Position numbers and translations under genes: made by a program. Source: Massilia sp. UMI-21 (lineage in GTDB: Bacteria > Pseudomonadota > Gammaproteobacteria > Burkholderiales > Burkholderiaceae_D). Taken from it: 64,000 nt of DNA. The stretch lies in NCBI GenBank assembly GCA_015277795.1, contig CP063848.1, forward strand, positions 558,001 to 622,000, read 5' to 3'. Below, piece after piece: positions 26,235 to 45,705 of the stretch. The notes beneath the pieces were generated by a model that did no database searches, had not been told where the DNA came from, and worked only from the letters and a program-made list of their open reading frames with translations. The stretch's first letter is position 1. The number at the start of each line of letters is the position of its first letter.

Positions 26235-29200
26235 ATGAAAGCACTGCTCGATCTATTCAAGCAAGTTCAGACGAACGAGAGTTTCGACGCCATCAAGATC
26301 GGCCTCGCCTCGCCTGAAAAAATCCGTTCCTGGTCGTTCGGCGAAGTCAAGAAGCCGGAAACCATCAACTACCGCACCTTCAAGCCTGAGCGCGACGGTC
26401 TGTTCTGCGCCAAGATCTTTGGCCCGATCAAGGACTACGAATGCCTGTGCGGCAAGTACAAGCGCCTGAAGCACCGCGGCGTCATCTGCGAGAAGTGCGG
26501 CGTCGAAGTCACGCTGGCCAAGGTGCGCCGTGAGCGCATGGGCCACATCGAGCTGGCCTCGCCGACCGCCCACATCTGGTTCCTGAAGTCGCTGCCGTCG
26601 CGTCTGGGCATGGTCCTGGACATGACCCTGCGCGACATCGAACGCGTGCTGTACTTCGAAGCATACGTCGTGACCGATCCGGGCATGACCCCGCTGAAGA
26701 AGTGCCAGATCATGTCGGAAGACGACTACGCCGCCAAGTACGAAGAGTACGGCGACGACTTCACCGCATTCATGGGCGCCGAAGGCATCCGTGAGCTGCT
26801 GCGCTCGATCGACATCCACCGCGATGCCGAAGCCCTGCGCGTGGAGCTGAAGGAATCGAAGTCCGAAGCCAAGATCAAGAAATACGCCAAGCGCCTGAAG
26901 GTGCTCGAGGCGTTCCAGCGCTCGGGCATCAAGCCCGAGTGGATGATCATGGAAGTGCTCCCGGTCCTGCCGCCGGAGCTGCGTCCGCTCGTCCCGCTGG
27001 ATGGCGGCCGTTTCGCCACCTCCGACCTGAACGACCTGTACCGCCGCGTCATCAACCGTAATAACCGCCTGAAGCGCCTGATGGAACTGCGCGCGCCGGA
27101 AATCATTACGCGTAACGAAAAGCGCATGCTGCAGGAAGCAGTGGACTCGCTGCTGGACAACGGCCGTCGCGGCAAAGCGATGACCGGCGCCAACAAGCGT
27201 CCGCTGAAGTCGCTGGCTGAAATGATCAAGGGTAAGGGCGGCCGTTTCCGTCAGAACCTGCTGGGCAAGCGCGTCGACTACTCGGGCCGTTCGGTCATCG
27301 TGGTCGGTCCGCAGCTCAAACTGCACCAGTGCGGCCTGCCGAAGCTGATGGCCCTGGAACTGTTCAAGCCGTTCATCTTCAACAAGCTCGAACTGATGGG
27401 TCTCGCGACCACCATCAAGGCAGCCAAGAAGCTGGTCGAAATCCAGGAACCGGTGGTCTGGGACATCCTGGAAGAGGTCATCAAAGAGCACCCGGTCATG
27501 CTGAACCGTGCGCCGACCCTGCACCGTCTCGGTATCCAGGCGTTCGAGCCGGTCCTGATCGAAGGCAAGGCCATCCAGCTGCACCCGCTGGTCTGCGCGG
27601 CGTTCAACGCCGACTTCGACGGTGACCAGATGGCAGTCCACGTGCCGCTGTCGATCGAAGCGCAGATGGAAGCGCGCACCCTGATGCTGGCATCGAACAA
27701 CATCCTGTTCCCGTCGAACGGCGAGCCGTCGATCGTGCCGTCGCAGGATATCGTGCTGGGTCTGTACTACGCGACCCGCGAAGCGATCAACGCCAAGGGC
27801 GAAGGCATGCTGTTCCCGGACGTGTCGGAAGTCATCCGCGCGTACGACAACAAGGAAGTCGAACTGGCGACCCGCATCACCGTGCGTATCGTGGAATACC
27901 CACGCGTGGCCGGCGGCGACGAGTTCGAGCGCACCGTCACCCGCTACGAGACCACCGTCGGCCGTGCGATCCTGTCCGAGATCCTGCCGAAAGGCCTGCC
28001 GTTCTCGGTGCTGAACCGCGCGCTGAAGAAGAAGGAAATCTCGAAGCTGATCAACACGTCGTTCCGCAAGTGCGGCCTGCGTGCGACCGTCGTCTTCGCG
28101 GACAAGCTGATGCAGTCGGGCTTCCGCCTGGCGACCCGCGCCGGCATCTCGATCGCGGTCGACGACATGCTGATCCCGGACGTCAAGAAGGGCATGATCG
28201 CCACCGCCGAAGCCGAAGTGAAGCAGATCGAGCAGCAGTACGCCTCGGGTCTGGTCACCGCCGGCGAGCGTTACAACAAGGTGGTCGACATCTGGGGCAA
28301 GACCTCGGACGAAGTCGGCAAGGCGATGATGGACCAGCTGAAAGTGGAGCCGGTCACCAAGCGTGACGGCACCGAAGGCACCCAGGAATCGTTCAACGCG
28401 ATTTACATGATGGCCGACTCGGGCGCCCGTGGTTCGGCAGCCCAGATCCGCCAGCTGGCCGGTATGCGAGGCCTGATGGCCAAGCCGGACGGTTCGATTA
28501 TCGAAACGCCGATTACCGCGAACTTCCGCGAAGGCCTGAACGTTCTGCAGTACTTCATCTCGACCCACGGCGCCCGTAAGGGTCTGGCGGATACGGCACT
28601 GAAGACCGCGAACTCGGGTTACCTGACCCGCCGCCTGGTCGACGTGACCCAGGATCTGGTCGTGACCGAGGACGATTGCGGCACCAACAACGGCACGCAC
28701 ATGAAGGCGATGGTCGAAGGTGGTGAAGTCATCGAGCCGCTGCGCGACCGTATCCTCGGCCGCGTGACCGGCAACGATGTCGTCAATCCGGAAACCCAGG
28801 AAACCGTGTTCGAAGCCGGCACCCTGCTGGACGAAGACATGGTCGAAGAGATCGAACGTCTCGGCATCGACGAAGTGAAGGTCCGCACCCCGCTGAACTG
28901 CGACACCCGCTTCGGCCTGTGCGCAATGTGCTACGGCCGTGACCTGGGTCGCGGCATGCTGGTCAACAGCGGCGAAGCAGTCGGCGTCGTGGCGGCACAG
29001 TCGATCGGTGAGCCGGGTACCCAGCTGACCATGCGTACCTTCCACATCGGTGGTGCGGCGTCGCGTGCGGCAGTGGCATCGTCGGTCGAAGCCAAGTCGA
29101 ACGGCACGGTTCGCTTCACCGCGACCATGCGTTACGTGACCAACGGCAAGGGCGCGCAGATCGTCATCTCGCGTTCGGGCGAAGTCCTGATCACCGACGA

Positions 29201-30485
29201 CCACGGCCGTGAGCGCGAGCGCCACAAGGTGCCGTACGGCGCGACCCTGATCGTCAAGGATGGCCAGCTGGTGAAAGCCGGCACCGCCCTGGCGACCTGG
29301 GATCCGCTGACCCGTCCGATCATTACCGAGTACGCAGGTACCATCAAGTTCGAAAACGTGGAAGAGGGCGTCACCGTCGCTCGCCAGGTCGACGAAGTGA
29401 CCGGCCTGTCGACCCTGGTCGCGATCGATCCGAAGCGCCGCGGTTCGGGCAAGGTCCTGCGTCCGCAGGTCAAGCTGCTGAACGAAGAAGGCCAGGAAGT
29501 CAAGATCGCCGGCACCGAGCACGCCGTGGCGATCGGTTTCCAGGTCGGCGCGCTGATCATGGTCAAGGACGGCCAGCAGGCAACCGTGGGTGAAGTGCTG
29601 GCACGTATCCCGACCGAATCGCAGAAGACCCGCGACATTACCGGTGGTCTGCCGCGCGTTGCCGAACTGTTCGAAGCACGTTCGCCGAAAGACGCCGGCA
29701 TGCTGGCGGAAGTCACCGGTACCGTGGCGTTCGGTAAAGAGACCAAGGGCAAGCAGCGCCTGGAAATCACCGACATGGACGGCAACAAGCACGAGTTCCT
29801 GATCACCAAGGACAAGCAGGTGCTGGTCCACGATGGTCAAGTCGTGAACAAGGGCGAGATGATCGTCGACGGTCCGGCCGACCCGCAGGACATCCTGCGC
29901 CTGCTGGGTATCGAAGCGCTGGCCCGCTACATCGTGGACGAAGTGCAGGACGTGTACCGTCTGCAGGGCGTGAAGATCAACGACAAGCACATCGAGGTGA
30001 TCGTTCGCCAGATGCTGCGTCGTGTGCAGATCGTCGAAGCCGGCGACACCGACTACATCGTCGGCGAGCAGGTGGAGCGTTCGGAGCTGCTGGAAGAGAA
30101 CGACAAGGTCACGGCTGCTGGCAAACTGCCGGCAACCTACGAAAACGTGCTGCTGGGTATTACCAAAGCATCGCTGTCGACCGACTCGTTCATCTCGGCC
30201 GCATCGTTCCAGGAAACCACCCGCGTCCTGACCGAAGCGGCGATCATGGGCAAGCGCGACGGTCTGCGCGGCCTGAAGGAAAACGTCATCGTCGGCCGCC
30301 TGATCCCTGGCGGTACCGGCCTGGCATTCCACCGCGCCCGCAAGGAGAAGGAAGTGTGGGAGGCGGAAGAGCGCCAGGCACTGCTGCAGCAGGAGAAGGC
30401 CAACATGGCTGCCGAACTGCAGGCGATGGAAGACCAGCAGAATGCTGCGGCCTCGGTCGAACAGCATCATGGTGACGACGAGTAA
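26235..30485 (+). CDS. rpoC: RNA polymerase subunit beta'
   Basis: 1,416 residues. RpoC holds the catalytic magnesium: NADFDGD sits at residues 458-464, with Asp 460, 462 and 464 at the same numbers as in E. coli. The first zinc site (Cys 70, 72, 85, 88) and the second ([11 protein letters not shown] near 890) are present, as is the trigger-loop region. The ribosome site is CTGGAG before the ATG. The last 21 residues are repeated in a diverged form 133 bp downstream. An intrinsic terminator follows. Confidence 0.99.
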
Positions 30486-30513
30486 TCGTTGTAGCTGCTA
30501 GCTGCAAATGAGA

Positions 30514-30543
30514 ACGGCACCCGAAGGGGTGCCGTTTTTTTTT
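30514..30543 (+). terminator. Intrinsic terminator of the rpoBC operon
   Basis: ACGGCACCC (30514-30522), loop GAAG, GGGTGCCGT (30527-30535) and nine T residues. This is a textbook strong terminator 28 nt after the rpoC stop. Confidence 0.95.
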
Positions 30544-30553
30544 CCTGAACCGG

Positions 30554-30618
30554 AGGCGATGGAAGATCAGCACAATGCTGCGGCTTCGGTCAAACGACAT
30601 CATGACAACGACGAGTAA
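30554..30618 (+). pseudogene. Second, diverged copy of the rpoC 3' end
   Basis: This stretch aligns without gaps to 30421-30485 of rpoC with about nine mismatches. Read in the matching frame it gives EAMEDQHNAAASVKRHHDNDE and a stop, against [21 protein letters not shown] at the true rpoC end. It has no start codon or ribosome site of its own and lies behind the first terminator, so it is a remnant rather than a gene. A second terminator of similar sequence follows it. Confidence 0.9.
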
Positions 30619-30648
30619 TCGTCCACGCCACTACGCTAAAGGTGAGAG

Positions 30649-30675
30649 CGGCACCCTGCGGGGTGCTGTTTTTTT
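30649..30675 (+). terminator. Second terminator, similar to the rpoBC terminator
   Basis: CGGCACCC (30649-30656), loop TGCG, GGGTGCTG (30661-30668, one G-T pair) and seven T residues. Its sequence and distance from the copied rpoC tail mirror the first terminator, so it was probably duplicated along with that tail. Confidence 0.9.
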
Positions 30676-31199: not shown

Positions 31200-34100
31200 A
31201 TGTTGCATACAGTAAAACCACAGTCCAAAGCGACCATGCTGCGCCGTTCCGCCATTTCCGTGGCAATCGGCATGTGCTTCATGGGCGCTGCCCTGGCGGC
31301 AGAAACCGGTGGCCTGCGTATTGCCATCACCGGTAACGGCGGCAAGCCTGTCGCCGGCGCCACCGTGCGCATCAGCTCGCCAAGCAGCTTGGTCACCAAG
31401 ACGGCTGTCACCGAGGCAGACGGTACCGTCCGCGTCGCCGGTCTGGATCCGGCAACCGACTACAAGATCGAAGTGCTGGCCCCGGGCTACACGGCCTATA
31501 CCGCCACCGACGTCGCGGTTGTATCCAACCAGAACCCGAGCCTGACCTACTCGATCGGCGGCGATGCTGCCGCGCCGGGCGCCCAGCAAGTGGTCGTGAC
31601 CGGTTCGCGCCTGGTGCGCGTCGACACCACCTCGGCTACTGTCGGCACCGTGCTGAACCTGGGCGTGGTGGAATCGCTGCCGACCGGCCGTAACTACCAG
31701 AGCTACCTGCAGCTGGTTCCGGGCGTCAAGCCTTCGTCGGGCGGCAACCCGGCGTCGAAATCGGGCGTGAACTATTCGGACATCGGCGGCGCCACCGGCT
31801 CCTCGTCGGACAACGTCTACATCCTGGACGGCGTCGACGTGACCGACCCGAGCACCGGTACCTTTGGTTCGAACATCAACTCGGAAATCATCCAGGAACA
31901 GCAGATCCTGACCGGCGGCATCCCGGCCGAATACGCAGGTGGTTCGGGCCTGGTCTCGAAAGTGATCACCAAGTCGGGTAGCAACGAGTACCACGGCTCG
32001 GTCAACTACTACTTCCAGAACGACAACCTGGTCGCCGACTACAAGAACACCACCTCGTCGGGCTTCTCGACCTACGACGCGGCAGTGACCCTGGGCGGTC
32101 CGATCATCAAGGACAAGCTGTGGTTCTTCGGTTCGTACCAGAAGAAGGCCCGTGAAACCGATGTGGTCAACTCCGACACCGGCGAATTCATGCGTACCGT
32201 CAACCGCGACGACCGCCTGGGCTTCTTCAAGATGACCTGGCAGGCGACCGAGAACGACCGCCTGGTGGCTTCGTTCTTCAATGACCCGACCGAGACCACC
32301 GGCACCACCACCGCGACCACCCTGAACAACCGCGACACCCGTCGCAAGCAGGGCGGCAACAACTACAACCTCCAGTACTCGCGCGACATGGAGAACCTGC
32401 GCGTGACCGCGTACGCGTTCCGCCACGAAGGCGAATTGTCGGATTTCGCAGCCAGCGACGCGATCCGCAACACCATCACCTTCCGTCCGCCGCCATCGCC
32501 GTCGCTGTCCCAGGTGCAGCTGGGCGGCAACGGCACCGACTTCATCTCGGAGCGCAACCGCGATGAAATCGGCCTGAACGCCGAATACTTCTGGGAGACC
32601 GCCAACTCGGGCACCCACACCATCAAGGGCGGCTTCCTGACCTCGAAGAACGAGTACTTCGAAGACTCGCGCTATGCGGGTGCGGAAAAGGCGCTGTACA
32701 CCTCGATGAACGTCGCCCAGGGCAAGGTCTCGTTCACCGACGCCGTCGCCTCTGGCTGGACCAGCCGTCCGGTCGTCGCCGGCGACGTCCCGCGTATCAT
32801 CAGCGCAATCAACGGCGCCGCGGCCGGCGACCGCGCCTATTTCTACAACCTGCTCGACAGCAACCGCGACGGCGCGCTCACCGATGCGGAAATCCGCGCG
32901 CTGCAGTTCGGCAGCACCACCGGCAACCCGGGCGGCCAGGTCAACCTGTACCGCATCCGCGAAGCGCAAGCCTCGCCATACACTGTGGAAGCGACCGGCA
33001 AGGCTGCCTACCTGCAGGATACCTGGACCAAGGGCGACCTGACCATCGGCGTCGGCGTGCGTGCGGAAGAGTGGACCCACAAGGATTCGAAGGGCAACGA
33101 GTCGGCCAAGTTCGAGTGGAAACTCGCGCCGCGCCTGAACGTCGTGTATGACCCGACCGGCGACGGCCGCAGCAAGATCTGGGGCTTCCTGGGCCGTTAC
33201 TATGACCCGATCCGCACCAACATGTCCGACTTCGCCGGCAACCTGACCGGTCCGGTGCTGGAAGAGCAGGTTTACGTGGGCGACCGCTGGCTGACCTTCC
33301 GCACCCGCGGCGGCGAGAAGCAGCCGGATGCCGTGTTCGCGCCGACCACCAAGACGCCGTACACCGACGAGTTCATGCTCGGCTACGCGACCAACATCGG
33401 CCGCGACTGGACTGCGTCGATCGCCTACACCAAGCGCCGTACCCGCGACATCCTGGAAGACTACGACCTGGCGCTGTACTCGGATCCGGACAACACCGTG
33501 GCAAGCCATGCCGGTCCGGGCTCCCCGTTCTACCTGCCGTATTCGTACTTCGGTTACTCGTCGAAGCCGAACTCGAACTACGTGCTGGGCACGCTGGCTG
33601 GCGGCAAGCGCGACTACCAGGGCGTCGAGGTCAGCCTGACCAAGGCCAAGCGCAACAACTGGATGGGTTCGGTGTCGTACACCTGGAACGAAGCCAAGGG
33701 CAACACCAACTCGGATAGTAATGCCGACTTCCAGGGCGACTGGGTCGCGCTGGATCCGCGTGCGCCGAATGCCTATGGCCCGCAGCCTGGCAACATCAAA
33801 CACCAGTTCAAGGGCTACGGCACCTACTACTTCGACAACGGCCTCGAGCTGAGCGGCGTGTTCAACTGGAACAGCGGTCTGCTGTACACCCGTTCGCAGC
33901 TGGTGTCCGGACGCTACCTGCCGGAGATGGACGACGAGTACGTGTTTGGCGGCGTGACCGATACCTGGATCAAGGCGGGTTCGATCGGCAGCCAGACCGG
34001 CCCGTCGTACTACACCTTGGACATGCGCCTGAAGTACACCTACAAGCTGGCCGGCAGCCAGAAGGTCGAACTCTTCCTCGACCTGTTCAACGTGCTGGAC

Positions 34101-34220
34101 AAGCAGTCGGGTACCGCGGCCCAGGCCCTGGTCAACTCGACCGGCAAGTACAAGTTCGGCCAGTCGAACACCTTCCTCGACCCGCGCCGCCTGTACGTCG
34201 GCGCACGCTACTCGTTCTAA
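31200..34220 (+). CDS. TonB-dependent outer-membrane receptor with carboxypeptidase-regulatory-like N-domain
   Basis: 1,006 residues. A signal peptide ends near 34 (GAALAAE). Residues about 36-120 form a small beta-sandwich domain of the carboxypeptidase-regulatory type, then a plug (VVVTGSR near 140, DNVYILDGVDV near 205) and a large beta-barrel ending in the aromatic YSF expected for outer-membrane insertion. The build resembles Oar-type receptors, often linked to peptides or proteins as ligands. Residues 553-564 (DSNRDGALTDAE) fit the EF-hand calcium loop exactly. It lies alone between a long gap and a strong terminator. Ligand unknown. Confidence 0.9.
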   Translation: MLHTVKPQSKATMLRRSAISVAIGMCFMGAALAAETGGLRIAITGNGGKPVAGATVRISSPSSLVTKTAVTEADGTVRVAGLDPATDYKIEVLAPGYTAYTATDVAVVSNQNPSLTYSIGGDAAAPGAQQVVVTGSRLVRVDTTSATVGTVLNLGVVESLPTGRNYQSYLQLVPGVKPSSGGNPASKSGVNYSDIGGATGSSSDNVYILDGVDVTDPSTGTFGSNINSEIIQEQQILTGGIPAEYAGGSGLVSKVITKSGSNEYHGSVNYYFQNDNLVADYKNTTSSGFSTYDAAVTLGGPIIKDKLWFFGSYQKKARETDVVNSDTGEFMRTVNRDDRLGFFKMTWQATENDRLVASFFNDPTETTGTTTATTLNNRDTRRKQGGNNYNLQYSRDMENLRVTAYAFRHEGELSDFAASDAIRNTITFRPPPSPSLSQVQLGGNGTDFISERNRDEIGLNAEYFWETANSGTHTIKGGFLTSKNEYFEDSRYAGAEKALYTSMNVAQGKVSFTDAVASGWTSRPVVAGDVPRIISAINGAAAGDRAYFYNLLDSNRDGALTDAEIRALQFGSTTGNPGGQVNLYRIREAQASPYTVEATGKAAYLQDTWTKGDLTIGVGVRAEEWTHKDSKGNESAKFEWKLAPRLNVVYDPTGDGRSKIWGFLGRYYDPIRTNMSDFAGNLTGPVLEEQVYVGDRWLTFRTRGGEKQPDAVFAPTTKTPYTDEFMLGYATNIGRDWTASIAYTKRRTRDILEDYDLALYSDPDNTVASHAGPGSPFYLPYSYFGYSSKPNSNYVLGTLAGGKRDYQGVEVSLTKAKRNNWMGSVSYTWNEAKGNTNSDSNADFQGDWVALDPRAPNAYGPQPGNIKHQFKGYGTYYFDNGLELSGVFNWNSGLLYTRSQLVSGRYLPEMDDEYVFGGVTDTWIKAGSIGSQTGPSYYTLDMRLKYTYKLAGSQKVELFLDLFNVLDKQSGTAAQALVNSTGKYKFGQSNTFLDPRRLYVGARYSF

Positions 34221-37260: not shown

Positions 37261-38250
37261 GTGTCCCGTAAAAAAAACAGCCGCCAGTGGGCGCGCCTGC
37301 GAATCCTGTGTTCCGGCGGCCTGCACCTGATGACCCTCATCCCCGATGCGCTGGAACTGGTGCGCGAGCTGATCCCCAACAGCGCGTCCCAACTGTTCCT
37401 GCACGCCGAACGCGCGCCGCAAGACATGCACGAGGCGAACGTGCTGGGCGTGCTGCCGCCGCCGAACGGATACTTCTATGGTGACGCGAAGGACTTTGGC
37501 GTGGCCCCGGGCGAGGCGCGGGCACGCGCCCGCCACGTGCTCGAGACCTGCCTCGGTCCGGCCGCGAGCCCGGTCGGCACGCTGACCCTGCTGCGCGACG
37601 ACGGCCCTCCCTTCGATACCGACGACCAGGAAGACCTGGGACGCGTCGCCAACTACTTCGACCATGCGCTGCGCAACGCGGCCAGCGCCGGCAATGGACT
37701 GCAAGGGGTGATCGAGGACGAGGCCATGCTGCTGGCCACCACCAACGGCGACATCCTGTTCCTGAGCGATTCGGCCGGCGCGCTGCTCGACCAGCTGGCG
37801 TCGCAGGAGCAGCAGGTGTTCGACCGCCGCACGCTGCCGCCGTTCTGCCTGCGCCTGGTGGAATCGGTGGTGTACGGCGAACGCTACCCCTGGCGCCTGC
37901 CGGCGGGCACGCTGGAACTGGCCGGCGGCGTGCTGGAAGCGCGCGCCCAGTGGATGAGCGCCGGTTCCTGCGACGCGATCCACAGCCGCACGGTCGGCAT
38001 CTTCCTGAAGTTCGTGGTCCCGATGCCGCTGCGGATCTGGCGCGCCCTGGGCAGCGTCGAGCTGTCGCCGCAGCAGATGGAAGTGGCGTTCTGGATGGGA
38101 CTGGGCGGCGGACGCGAAGCGGCCAGGAGCCGCATGGACGTCAGCGACGCCGTGCTGCGCGACTGCGTGAAGGCCGTCTACGAGAAGTTCGGCTGCACCT
38201 CGGAAGCGGGGCTCCTGGGCATCCTGCGTCCCGTCATCTCGCGCATGTAG
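37261..38250 (+). CDS. LuxR-type transcriptional regulator
   Basis: 329 residues. The last ~60 residues align with the LuxR helix-turn-helix (LSPQQMEV, then VSDAVLRDCVKAVYEKFG), although the recognition helix lacks the usual Thr-Val. The first ~250 residues have no receiver signature and may form a ligand-sensing domain of unknown type. The start is uncertain: GTG at 37261 gives a basic N-terminus; ATG at 37330 would give 306 residues. It follows the hybrid kinase gene by 80 bp and may be the response arm of that kinase, although it lacks a phosphoacceptor. Confidence 0.7.
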   Translation: MSRKKNSRQWARLRILCSGGLHLMTLIPDALELVRELIPNSASQLFLHAERAPQDMHEANVLGVLPPPNGYFYGDAKDFGVAPGEARARARHVLETCLGPAASPVGTLTLLRDDGPPFDTDDQEDLGRVANYFDHALRNAASAGNGLQGVIEDEAMLLATTNGDILFLSDSAGALLDQLASQEQQVFDRRTLPPFCLRLVESVVYGERYPWRLPAGTLELAGGVLEARAQWMSAGSCDAIHSRTVGIFLKFVVPMPLRIWRALGSVELSPQQMEVAFWMGLGGGREAARSRMDVSDAVLRDCVKAVYEKFGCTSEAGLLGILRPVISRM

Positions 38251-42488: not shown

Positions 42489-42554
42489 GGTTTCCTGCTG
42501 CGGTAGTTGGAATGGATGGCGCATGGTGCGCGCCAAACATTGTATGCCAACTGT

Positions 42555-44858
42555 TCAGTTGAACCGCAACACATCCGCGGACACCGTCATGCCCGTGCCC
42601 GGCATGCGCGGCGGAGCGCCCGGCGGCAGCAGGTGCTCCGGCAGGCCGGGCATGCGCTCTTCGACGATCACCGCCAGCGGGTCGTCGTCCGGCGCGTCGA
42701 TGGCGAAGCGCAGCAGCTGGTCTTCCATCCCGTACAGCGACAGCGACCACGGGCTTTCCTTCGACGTCAGCACCCGGCCGTCGAGGGTGGAGTGCTGCGG
42801 CTTGGTGCCGGCCACCCACATCCGGATGTGCGGCGCGCGGTTCTTCGAGCGCAGCGTGAATTCCACCCGCCGCAACCCGGGCTGCGGCGAGGGCTTGGCC
42901 AGGCGGGGATTGCGCAGCATGAGGGCATCGGGAAAGGCGATGCGGTCCTCGCGCGGCGCGATCGCATACCACTGGCGCGGACTGTGCCAGCCGAAGACGT
43001 CGACATGGATGGCCGGCTTTTCCAGGTGCGGGAACAGCTGCTTCGACCACGCGTCCAGGGGTTGCGGCGGCAGCAGCCAGTAGGCGCGCCAGCTGTTCAT
43101 GTCCTTGAAATAGACCAGGCGGTTCGGCTCCACCCGCGGCCGCTCCGGTTCCTGCGGCCCGGATGCCTGCCCCGGCAGTGCCGCGCAGGCGGCCAGCGCC
43201 AGTACCAGGGCCGCGCCGACCACGCGCCCGAGCGGCAGCAGCAGGAGCAGGCTGGCGAAGCACAGCATCATGAGGGCGATCGCCAGCGTCGGCACGTACA
43301 TGGCGTACGGCGCCAGCGCGGCCCAGCTGGCGCGCAAGGCGGGCACGAACAGCAGCAGCGCCGGCGTGATGCCGGCCGCGAGGATCAAGAAGCGTGTCGG
43401 CGGACTGCGCGGCCTCTGCAAGGCGTGGAAGGCGGCCAGCGCCGCCGCCAGCGGCCAGGCCAGCAGCCAGGCGGCGTCCGGCGCCGCCAGCAGCGCCACG
43501 ACCAGCGCCAGGCTCAGCCAGGCCATCGTGCCCAGGAATACCGGCGTGGCGCCGATCAGGCGGCGCAGCAGGTACAGCGTGGCGATGAACAGGCAGCCTC
43601 CCGCGACCAGGAACACGATCGCGGCCGCGTTGTCCTGCATCCGCGTCAGCGCGGCCAGTTCATCGCGCCGTTCCCACAGCAGCATCCGGGCGCCCAGCAG
43701 GAGCAGCGCGACGCCGAAGAAGCCCTGCAGCAGCGGCGCCACGCTCGGGCCGGCGTCGTCCAGTGCCTGATGGTAGCCGCGCGCCAGCATCAGGCAGCTC
43801 AGCGCCGCCAGGCCCCAGCACAGGATGGCCGGATGCTGGACCGCGCCCAACAGGGGCAGCTGGAACCAGGCATGGGCCTGGCGGGCGCCGCGCGCCAGCG
43901 GCGCGTCGCCATAGTGGCGCGCCAGGCGCAGCATGCTCGCGCCCAGCTGGGCCAGCATGGCCGGATCGAGGCGTTCGATACTGTCCAGCGTCCCTGCGCC
44001 ATCGAAGCGCCTGCCGCTGTTCACGAACAGCAGGACCGGCGCCTCGATGCCGGACAGGGGGCCGATGCGCGGCGTGTCCGGCGTCAGCCTGGCCAGCCGC
44101 GCCATCAGCGACGACCCGTCCATGCCGGGCAGCGCCTGCGTGCGGCCGCGCAGCGTGCTGCTGCCGGCGTTGGCGGCGTCGTGGAGCACCAGCGGTCCGG
44201 CGCTGCCGCTCGCATCGAACTTCAGCGTCAGCCCGATGGTCTGCGCCAGCGGATGCTGCTCGACGAAGCCCTTGGCGCCGAGCGCGCCGACGTCCTCGCC
44301 GTCGAGGAACAGCATGACGATGTCGTTCGCGTGGGCCGGACCGGACTGCAGCGCCCTGGCGGTTTCGATCATGGCCGCCACCTGCGCCGCGCCGCGCGCC
44401 GCGCCCAGCGTGAACTTGCCGCTGTCGTAATGGGTGGCCAGCAGGAGGGCGGGGCGCTTGCGGCGGTCGGGCGCGCTGCCGGGCAGGCGCAGCACGATGT
44501 TGTGCACCACGCCGAGCGTCACGTCGGTGCCGCCCCAGTAACGGATGGTGGACTTCTGGACGGTGCTGGTCTGGACCGTCGGCGCCAGGCCGATGCCGCG
44601 CAACTGCGCCAGGATGTAGTCGCGCGCCCGGGCGTTGGCGGCGGTGGCGATCGGACGCGGCGCCGCGGCCAGCACGGCGGCGTGGCGCAGCATCCGGTCC
44701 AGCGCCGGCGGGGCAGGCGGCACCGACGGCGCGGATGGCGCGCCGCCGGTGGCGCGCCAGGCCAGCAGCGCCAGCACAAGCATGGCAAGCAGGCCGGCCG
44801 CCAGCGCGGCCGGACCTCGGACGCGCCGCGGCGGCGTCGGTATTCCAGCGATCAGCAT
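42555..44858 (-). CDS. Membrane M28-type protein with altered zinc site
   Basis: 767 residues. A signal anchor (about 15-35) precedes an M28-like domain (about 55-330), then six to eight hydrophobic segments (about 350-560) and a soluble C-terminal part. The layout resembles ER/vacuolar Fxna-like membrane peptidases. His143 and Asp145 in ATHYDSG are kept, and Glu188-Asp189 replace the usual Glu-Glu, but where family members read GA-x-DDG this protein reads GAARGA (Arg155, Gly156), so the bridging Asp is missing. It may be inactive or use another ligand. The start at 44858 has AAGGA; tonB lies upstream behind a terminator. Confidence 0.75.
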   Translation of the reverse strand: MLIAGIPTPPRRVRGPAALAAGLLAMLVLALLAWRATGGAPSAPSVPPAPPALDRMLRHAAVLAAAPRPIATAANARARDYILAQLRGIGLAPTVQTSTVQKSTIRYWGGTDVTLGVVHNIVLRLPGSAPDRRKRPALLLATHYDSGKFTLGAARGAAQVAAMIETARALQSGPAHANDIVMLFLDGEDVGALGAKGFVEQHPLAQTIGLTLKFDASGSAGPLVLHDAANAGSSTLRGRTQALPGMDGSSLMARLARLTPDTPRIGPLSGIEAPVLLFVNSGRRFDGAGTLDSIERLDPAMLAQLGASMLRLARHYGDAPLARGARQAHAWFQLPLLGAVQHPAILCWGLAALSCLMLARGYHQALDDAGPSVAPLLQGFFGVALLLLGARMLLWERRDELAALTRMQDNAAAIVFLVAGGCLFIATLYLLRRLIGATPVFLGTMAWLSLALVVALLAAPDAAWLLAWPLAAALAAFHALQRPRSPPTRFLILAAGITPALLLFVPALRASWAALAPYAMYVPTLAIALMMLCFASLLLLLPLGRVVGAALVLALAACAALPGQASGPQEPERPRVEPNRLVYFKDMNSWRAYWLLPPQPLDAWSKQLFPHLEKPAIHVDVFGWHSPRQWYAIAPREDRIAFPDALMLRNPRLAKPSPQPGLRRVEFTLRSKNRAPHIRMWVAGTKPQHSTLDGRVLTSKESPWSLSLYGMEDQLLRFAIDAPDDDPLAVIVEERMPGLPEHLLPPGAPPRMPGTGMTVSADVLRFN

Positions 44859-44902
44859 TCCTTGTCTCCTCGTTTCCTGTTGTTGTTGTGGTTTGTGTTG
44901 GG

Positions 44903-44929
44903 CGAAAAAAAGCCCGCGATGAAAGGCGG
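44903..44929 (-). terminator. Terminator of tonB
   Basis: On the minus strand GCCCGC, an 8-nt loop and GCGGGC (44924-44929 with 44910-44915) are followed by seven T residues (44903-44909). Canonical, 23 nt after the tonB stop. Confidence 0.88.
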
Positions 44930-44951
44930 GCAAAAAGGGAACGGAGATGAT

Positions 44952-45617
44952 TTATTCAAGCGTCCAGACGTAGGCGATCTGCCCCCATCCGGCTGCGGCG
45001 ACGCCGTTGTTCATGGCCGGCTTGAACTGGCACAGGCTCAGGGCATTGAGCGCGGCGCGGTCCAGTTCGCGGTGGCCGCTCGACTTCTGGACCCGCGCAT
45101 CCCGCACCCGGCCGTCGGCGCCGACCAGCAGCGCCAGCGTCACGGTGCCGCTGTCGCCGTTGCGCGCCGCGTGCATCGGGTAGTCCGGCTTGGCGCAGCC
45201 GTCGGCGTTGGCCAGGACCGCGCTGTGCATCTGCCCCGGCCTGCTGTTGGAGACCGGCGCCGTGGGAGGCGCCTCGGGGGCGAGGGGAAGGGCCTGTTCC
45301 GGCACCGGCGCCGGCTCGATGGTGGCCTGCACCGGAGCTTCGACCGGGGGCGGCGGCAGCTCGACCTCCAGTGGCGGCACCACGATCCGGGGCGGGGCCA
45401 CCTGCTGACGGGGTTGCGGGGGCTGCGGCGGCGGCGGGGGCGGCGGCGCCTCCGGCTCGATCCAGACCGTGGCGTCGTCGATCAGCTTCGGCAGGGTGAT
45501 GCTCCTGGTGTTCATCACGTTGATGAGGCCGATGGCCACCAGCACGTGCAGGCCGGCCACGATTGCGAACTTTCCGGCCTTGCCGCCGGTCCCATCGTTG
45601 AGTTGCGTGAAGTGCAT
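44952..45617 (-). CDS. tonB: Energy transducer TonB
   Basis: 221 residues. TonB passes proton-motive energy from ExbBD to outer-membrane receptors. A single N-terminal membrane span (about 17-35) is followed by a proline-rich stretch (PPPPPPPQPPQPR from about 57) that reaches across the periplasm, and a C-terminal TonB fold (YPMHAARNGDSGTVTLALLVGADGRV, LDRAALNALSLCQFKPA). The ribosome site AGGAGA lies before the ATG. No exbB or exbD is next to it. A receptor that could use it is encoded at 31200. Confidence 0.93.
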   Translation of the reverse strand: MHFTQLNDGTGGKAGKFAIVAGLHVLVAIGLINVMNTRSITLPKLIDDATVWIEPEAPPPPPPPQPPQPRQQVAPPRIVVPPLEVELPPPPVEAPVQATIEPAPVPEQALPLAPEAPPTAPVSNSRPGQMHSAVLANADGCAKPDYPMHAARNGDSGTVTLALLVGADGRVRDARVQKSSGHRELDRAALNALSLCQFKPAMNNGVAAAGWGQIAYVWTLE

Positions 45618-45705
45618 GGCGATCTCCTCTTCTTATGACGTCCGGCGACGGGGTCGCAAAACTTGGTGCTTAAGGAAAGATGTGCATCTATCAGCTGATG
45701 GAATC

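What the first reader, a model, noticed from the sequence alone, without database searches (positions are those of the whole stretch)
30421..30675. The end of rpoC and its terminator are present twice, the second copy diverged
Bases 30554-30618 repeat the last 21 codons and stop of rpoC at about 87% identity (about nine mismatches in the aligned block), 133 bp downstream, and a second terminator of like sequence follows at 30649-30675. The second copy encodes a recognisable variant tail (…SVKRHHDNDE against …[10 protein letters not shown]), so it looks like another allele, not a fresh duplication. A simple explanation is allele exchange at rpoC in which the incoming or the resident tail was left behind. 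The double terminator could also tighten insulation of the receptor gene downstream.
Basis: seen in the sequence. Interest (0 to 1): 0.7.

Follow-up and report, generated by a model that had tools for sequence, protein, structure and literature searches.

The report
Displaced second tail of rpoC gene
The last stretch of an essential RNA polymerase gene and its transcription stop signal occur a second time just downstream as a decaying leftover, and in related bacteria such leftovers often lie behind blocks of inserted genes, so the end of this gene looks like a docking place for foreign DNA.

Summary
In detail: the end of rpoC (30414-30489) recurs at 30547-30622, 133 bp on (76 nt, 86%), followed by a second strong terminator hairpin. 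The copy looks like a decaying remnant. It is one case of a recurrent pattern. In the same genus (Massilia/Telluria) 9 of 57 scanned genomes carry an extra rpoC 3' end downstream of the intact gene; in 7 of the 9 it lies behind 2.1-6.4 kb of varied genes (e.g. AriA/AriB of PARIS, VgrG, curli). Left edges range from -71 to -799 before the stop, so there is no fixed att site. In a second genus 12 of 30 genomes have cargo-less tandem arrays of tail plus terminator. Among 328 control genes no other tail-only duplicate was seen. The gene next to rpoC falls into 37 families in 57 genomes. For the window the sequence is too short to choose between an exchange scar and a local tandem duplication. The closest known process is 3'-end (C-terminal) displacement of rhs and T6SS effector genes; what differs is that it happens at an essential housekeeping gene.

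The parts
26235..30485 (+). rpoC (RNA polymerase beta' subunit), intact, 1416 aa
   Evidence: ORF list; its translation finds rpoC with 92-98% identity in 56 other genomes of the genus
30414..30489 (+). first copy of the repeat: the end of rpoC in use
   Evidence: direct repeat family D1
30510..30539 (+). first intrinsic terminator hairpin with T run
   Evidence: terminator scan; RNA fold -23.4 kcal/mol
30547..30622 (+). second, displaced copy of the end of rpoC, without the rest of the gene, 86% identical, decaying
   Evidence: direct repeat D1; four bases seen in none of the 57 congeneric tails compared
30644..30674 (+). second intrinsic terminator hairpin with T run
   Evidence: RNA fold -22.6 kcal/mol
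31200..34220 (+). downstream gene for an outer-membrane receptor-like protein; an accessory gene at this hotspot, with a relative next to rpoC in G057 only among 57 congeners
   Evidence: Pfam OMP_b-brl_4 and CarboxypepD_reg; family c37 in 2 of 57 genomes, 74% identical in the alignment

Best explanation
The second copy is a displaced rpoC 3' end left by recombination at the end of rpoC. In this bacterial group the end of rpoC acts as a homologous docking arm: incoming DNA that carries an rpoC end, with or without genes behind it, recombines inside rpoC, so the gene stays intact with a fresh tail and terminator; its other end joins within or near the old tail, which is pushed downstream with its terminator and decays. 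In the window no genes lie between the copies: either only tail and terminator came in, or cargo was later deleted. Shown: recurrent displaced tails in the genus, cargo between them, variable edges, the ancestral junction behind the last displaced tail of G015, and two alleles in one genome in G015 and G052. Inferred: that the window's copy arose this way, that the DNA came by uptake, and that the far end is joined by homology-assisted illegitimate recombination.
For: Extra rpoC 3' ends in 9 of 57 congeners, 7 of these with 2.1-6.4 kb of other genes in between; G015 after its last displaced tail aligns with G027, G028 and G023 from base 1, 8 and 13 after their rpoC stops, i.e. the old junction is kept behind the insertion; different alleles in current and displaced tails in G015 and G052; no tail-only duplicate in the other control genes; hypervariable neighbour gene, 37 families in 57 genomes; a close relative, G014, also has a cargo-less but longer, internally deleted remnant (pieces at -512..-467 and -61..0); the window's second UTR scores higher against those of G043, G047, G044, G002 and G053 (60-63) than against its own (49.5; the own slice was cut 2-3 T short, worth at most about 6 points).
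Against: In the window the copy is short (about 72 nt of rpoC) and without cargo, like the sister-genus arrays, whereas 9 of the 10 remnants behind cargo, counting G122, G142 and G253, reach at least 254 nt into rpoC (G025 with 101 nt is the exception). Current and displaced copies of the window share two minority bases absent from its nearest rpoC relatives G003, G060 and G053, which favours a local origin. Three of six testable remnants (G002, G029, G015-B) show no allele difference, and a tree of whole remnants puts those of G052 and G002 beside their own tails.
Confidence: 0.5

Rival explanations
1. Local tandem duplication of tail plus terminator (133 bp) in this lineage by slippage or unequal crossing-over, followed by decay of the second tail; no incoming DNA.
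For: Cargo-less tandem arrays of tail plus terminator in 12 of 30 genomes of a sister genus, with one to three extra units; same short length and direct abutment in the window; two minority bases shared by both copies; own tail ties as nearest in the tail alone (65/79).
Against: The second copy is not clearly nearest its neighbour (689 of 2000 bootstraps) and its UTR scores nearer to other species; it does not explain cargo in front of displaced tails in 7 of 9 congeners.
Confidence: 0.38
2. Whatever its origin, the second unit is kept because two terminators in series insulate the downstream receptor gene from the strongly transcribed rpoBC operon.
For: Both hairpins keep strong predicted structure although the bases between differ (26/31 alike); in the sister genus array terminators are 98.0% alike against 83.9% for tails.
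Against: Within-genome spacers are also more alike (94.3%) than between species (86.9%), which points to gene conversion or recent unit turnover; 15 of 30 genomes of that genus and 48 of 57 congeners do without; no expression data.
Confidence: 0.08
3. Site-specific element that integrates into the 3' end of rpoC by an integrase and rebuilds the gene, as elements do in tRNA genes; the window would be an excision scar.
For: Intact gene in front and tail copy behind the cargo.
Against: Left edges at -71, -101, -254, -325, -512, -555, -680, -684, -790 and -799, no fixed site; no tyrosine or serine integrase in the cargo proteins scanned, only a weak rve (transposase-type) match in G047 and an IS1595 transposase in G013.
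Confidence: 0.02
4. Assembly or consensus error.
For: None found.
Against: Single-contig genome, 14% divergence between the copies, same kind of structure in other genomes.
Confidence: 0.01

Closest known systems
Sequential displacement of T6SS effector genes in Vibrio cholerae and C-terminal displacement of rhs genes (PMC5361080, abstract and passages seen)
   Same: A new module enters at the 3' part of a conserved gene, the old 3' part or its neighbours are shifted downstream and remain as orphans; homology-facilitated illegitimate recombination is proposed there too.
   Different: There the gene is itself the polymorphic toxin and the replaced part is functional cargo. Here the gene is essential rpoC, its replaced tail is a near-equivalent allele, and the cargo is unrelated to it.
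Effector swapping in Pseudomonas aeruginosa with a breakpoint at the vgrG 3' end (PMC11751169, passages seen)
   Same: One homologous breakpoint at the 3' end of a conserved gene and less precise far breakpoints.
   Different: The anchor is a secretion gene, not a housekeeping gene; displaced tails were not a topic of the passages seen.
[quoted passage not shown]
   Same: Hypervariable gene content beside a core gene and recombination in that core gene.
   Different: Here duplicated tails of the core gene record the insertions.
Integrative elements that use the 3' end of a gene as att site (recalled, no call)
   Same: The gene is restored and a tail copy remains at the far end.
   Different: Here edges vary and no integrase was found in the scanned cargo.

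Membership tests
3'-end (C-terminal) displacement | Intact gene in front, orphan copies of its 3' part downstream | tested here: met
   Window and 8 further of 57 congeners
3'-end (C-terminal) displacement | New genes between the gene and the orphan 3' part | tested here: not met
   None in the window (57 bp with a terminator); met in 7 of the 9 congeners
3'-end (C-terminal) displacement | Orphan and current 3' parts are different alleles | tested here: inconclusive
   Window undecided; clear in G015 and G052, weaker in G038, absent in G002, G029 and G015-B
Site-specific integration into a gene's 3' end | Fixed edge of the duplicated tail (att core) | tested here: not met
   Edges from -71 to -799
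Site-specific integration into a gene's 3' end | Integrase gene in the element | tested here: not met
   None in the cargo proteins scanned; not every small ORF was scanned
Simple tandem duplication | Second copy nearest to the first among all available tails | tested here: inconclusive
   689 of 2000 bootstraps
Intrinsic terminator (second hairpin) | Stable G+C-rich stem followed by a T run | tested here: met
   -22.6 kcal/mol, z -4.3; not listed by the consensus scan
Intrinsic terminator (second hairpin) | Transcripts end there | not testable with these tools
   Needs 3' RNA-end data
PARIS (cargo of G015, not of the window) | AAA_15 or AAA_21 ATPase next to DUF4435 above the published score limits (32, 27 and 27; PMC9122126 methods passage) | tested here: met
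   AAA_15 67.3, AAA_21 58.6, DUF4435 29.8 bits, adjacent genes; PADLOC AriA 1.1e-27, AriB 2.4e-9

The most novel reading that the evidence does not exclude
The end of rpoC is an integrase-free docking system. Cargo flanked by two rpoC tails can be moved by ordinary homologous recombination into any relative's single rpoC, because that one gene end supplies both homology arms; the gene survives each round, and the displaced tails are the record of past insertions. Defence and rivalry genes are among the cargo. The window is an empty or emptied dock.
Probability: 0.3. Interest if true: 0.75.

Novelty: new variant of a known kind. Interest (0 to 1): 0.58.

Why it matters
Many gene hotspots leave no footprint of how genes came in. 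Here displaced tails of a slowly evolving essential gene orient and count past insertions, so integrase-free acquisition of accessory genes, defence genes among them, could be read from sequence and tested by transformation. It also shows that partial copies of an essential gene beside the gene can be informative scars and not assembly noise.

Tried and rejected
Rfam on the window stretch: best E 0.12, all matches below their gathering scores; on nine relatives' loci one match, a group II intron piece in G047. Coding role of extra tails: in the sister-genus arrays some copies keep the rpoC frame and others are frameshifted; no dN/dS was computed. Defence enrichment of the hotspot: PADLOC at 1e-15 on 69 accessory proteins near rpoC gave AriA models (3 members), NsnB (2) and single members of PDC-M31A, DrmD, Hp1, HEC-01A and others; 69 control proteins gave DpdE, DpdF, ZorD, DrmD and a few more. 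The output counts members per family and not proteins with a hit, so no enrichment is claimed. From the 70 references I dropped one (the rpoC-remnant ORF of G015) and, to keep sizes equal, the last control. Fixed att site: disfavoured by variable edges. Matches of 27 nt in G019 and of 24-27 nt in G110, G074 and L103, none of them at the gene end, were set aside as chance. The tree of whole remnants gave mixed, partly weak placements. Control caveats: one control stretch (G000 610001-630000) overlaps the window by 12 kb, so some genes are counted twice among the 328; the downstream reach is shorter than 15 kb near stretch ends. Literature: searches listed no paper whose title or shown abstract deals with rpoC 3' ends as insertion sites or with duplicated rpoC tails; the library holds open-licence papers only and most hits were not opened.

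Full report
What is there. rpoC ends at 30485. A 76-nt stretch over its end (30414-30489) is repeated at 30547-30622 (86%, spacing 133). Each copy is followed by a terminator hairpin (-23.4 and -22.6 kcal/mol). In a 79-column comparison the copies differ at 14 sites; at four of these the second copy has a base seen in none of the 57 congeneric tails (the window's own included), and at two it has the genus-majority base where the window's own rpoC is the odd one. It looks like an old, decaying copy.

Relatives. The genus is Massilia/Telluria: contigs of equal length are named Massilia agri JCM 31661 (G002), Massilia sp. PDC64 (G052), Massilia sp. Root133 (G022), Massilia sp. ZL223 (G042) and Telluria aromaticivorans ML15P13 (G007). 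Of 62 genomes of the genus, the window's own included, 61 matched the rpoC end. I fetched the region of 59 (not G024, G054, G055) and could place rpoC in 57 (not in G013 and G048, which lie at contig edges). Downstream reach was mostly 5-14 kb, but 0.8 kb in G003. Nine of 57 carry a further rpoC 3' end downstream on the same strand: G000 (window), G014, G015 (two), G052, G002, G047, G029, G025 (weak) and G038; G013 shows one at a contig edge and is not in the count. Distances from the rpoC stop are 62 and 109 bases in G000 and G014 and 2.1-6.4 kb in the other seven. Left edges lie between -799 and -71, and G047, G015-A, G014 and G038 have internal deletions. The junctions looked at share a few bases by eye; no statistic was made.

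Cargo. Between rpoC and the displaced tail lie: in G015 an AriA-like ATPase beside a DUF4435 AriB (PARIS by the published score limits) and, between its two displaced tails, Hp1 and Hp2; in G052 curli genes; in G002 a VgrG, a protein with a weak ADP-ribosyl-cyclase match and a PAAR protein; in G038 a metallophosphatase and a GHKL-type ATPase; in G029 a protein with a weak GHKL match and in G025 a metallophosphatase; in G047 proteins with acyltransferase, DUF2987 and weak rve matches and a group II intron piece. In other genera of the family G253 (g37) has an NsnB-like ATPase and G142 (g10) a TraB/PrgY/gumN protein and a 737-aa protein without Pfam match ahead of a displaced tail; G122 (g4) has a short piece at 0.7 kb. 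The site is hypervariable: the first ORF of at least 120 aa after rpoC falls into 37 families in 57 genomes, 22 of these seen in one genome only. Defence enrichment is not shown.

The displaced tail can be the ancestral one. In G015 the sequence after the last displaced tail aligns with G027, G028 and G023 from base 1, 8 and 13 after their rpoC stop codons. Old tail, terminator and old neighbours are in place; cargo and the other tails lie in front.

Two alleles in one genome. In G015 the first displaced copy at -400..-340 matches G022 at 51/51 and G028, G027, G026 and G018 at 50/51, but the current rpoC at 43/51; the current rpoC is unlike all congeners there (best G052, 46/51). At -500..-400 the displaced copy matches G027, G023 and G017 at 95/100 and its own rpoC at 90/100. 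In G052 the two copies agree at 446/455 up to -100; in the last 100 nt the displaced copy matches G015 at 105/107, the current one G027 and G023 at 98/101, and the two agree at 91/101. One 6-base indel makes up six of the eleven diagnostic columns there. G038 gives a weaker signal (71/73 to G035, G045 and G050 against 66/73 to its own). G002, G029 and G015-B show none. The blocks were chosen after seeing the profiles, and no correction for that was made.

Cargo-less arrays. In genus g6 (unnamed; 40 genomes, 38 matched, loci taken for the best 30) 12 of 30 have one to three extra tail-plus-terminator units in tandem (spacing about 186-224 bp), 3 have small pieces and 15 none. In many arrays the extra tails share a sequence type that differs from the own tail; in G272 and G316 they are nearer to the own tail. 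Own against copy, in 11 of the 12 genomes: tail 83.9%, spacer 94.3%, terminator 98.0%; own units between the 30 species: 95.6, 86.9 and 96.2%. So terminator and spacer are homogenised within a genome and the tail is not; selection on rpoC would reject conversion of the real tail (inference). The window's copy (tail 63/76, spacer 14/24, terminator 26/31) shows no such homogenising.

Controls and limits. Of 328 genes in the window and in 20 stretches of G000 and G248, three had a similar 3' end downstream: rpoC, a whole-gene duplicate (a reverse-transcriptase-like gene, 1368 of 1368 bases at 99.9%) and a gene matching a paralog in pieces along its length. rpsL, 2.4 kb behind rpoC in a Burkholderia, lies 113 kb away in this genome and was found in none of the 57 congeneric regions. 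Of 40 further family genomes fetched, 12 have rpsL in the region and none of the 12 has a displaced tail; 25 of the 40 were picked because one search gave them more than one match, so rates in that set are biased. Of 79 named loci scanned, only two Massilia ones (L094 and L096, the same contigs as G002 and G052) show a displaced tail. That loss of the rpsL neighbourhood opened the site is inference.

The window itself. Nearest-neighbour tests of the second copy are undecided (own 0.766, G053 0.766, G047 0.758; own nearest in 689 of 2000 bootstraps). Two minority bases shared by both copies but not by G003, G060 and G053 favour a local origin; the UTR scores favour another allele. Short length and lack of cargo fit a tandem duplication; the cargo-less remnant of the relative G014 fits an eroded displacement scar. 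I put 0.5 on displacement and 0.38 on local duplication. Firm is that the feature belongs to a recurrent process at the rpoC end in this family.

Literature. PMC5361080 (abstract and passages) proposes displacement of effector genes by homology-facilitated illegitimate recombination and cites C-terminal displacement of rhs; PMC11751169 (passages) reports a breakpoint at the vgrG 3' end; PMC5635113 (abstract) states that many hotspots lack mobile elements and show recombination at flanking core genes; PMC9122126 (passages) defines PARIS. The searches listed in Tried and rejected showed nothing on rpoC.

Noticed in passing
L172 (G248), L174 (G288), L206 (G284), first 0.7 kb after rpoC: Tandem arrays of three extra rpoC-tail-plus-terminator units, with near-identical terminators and diverged tails; in G248 two units keep the rpoC reading frame with an ATG just after the T run.
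   Followed up: partly
L032:2616-4855 (G015): PARIS-like pair (AriA ATPase and DUF4435 AriB) between rpoC and a displaced rpoC tail, followed by an Hp1/Hp2 pair between two displaced tails (L032:5665-7765).
   Followed up: partly
L033:4095-6383 (G052): 762-aa protein with a weak NACHT match (below the Pfam cut-off) between the displaced rpoC tail and the old downstream genes; no PADLOC match.
   Followed up: no
L035:2506-2677 (G047): Group II intron piece (Rfam RF02001, 103 bits) about 170 bases after the rpoC stop, just behind the terminator.
   Followed up: no
L247:2090-3457 and the copy 490 bases further on (G000): Reverse-transcriptase-like gene present twice in tandem at 99.9% identity in the window's genome.
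   Followed up: no
G000:C1:588485 (rpoC stop) and 701538-701855 (rpsL): rpoC and rpsL, close neighbours in a Burkholderia locus, are 113 kb apart here; rpsL is absent from all 57 congeneric rpoC regions fetched.
   Followed up: partly
window 37261-38250 and 42507-45638: Two ORFs (329 and 1043 aa) on the + strand without a Pfam match at 0.001; they may or may not be genes.
   Followed up: no
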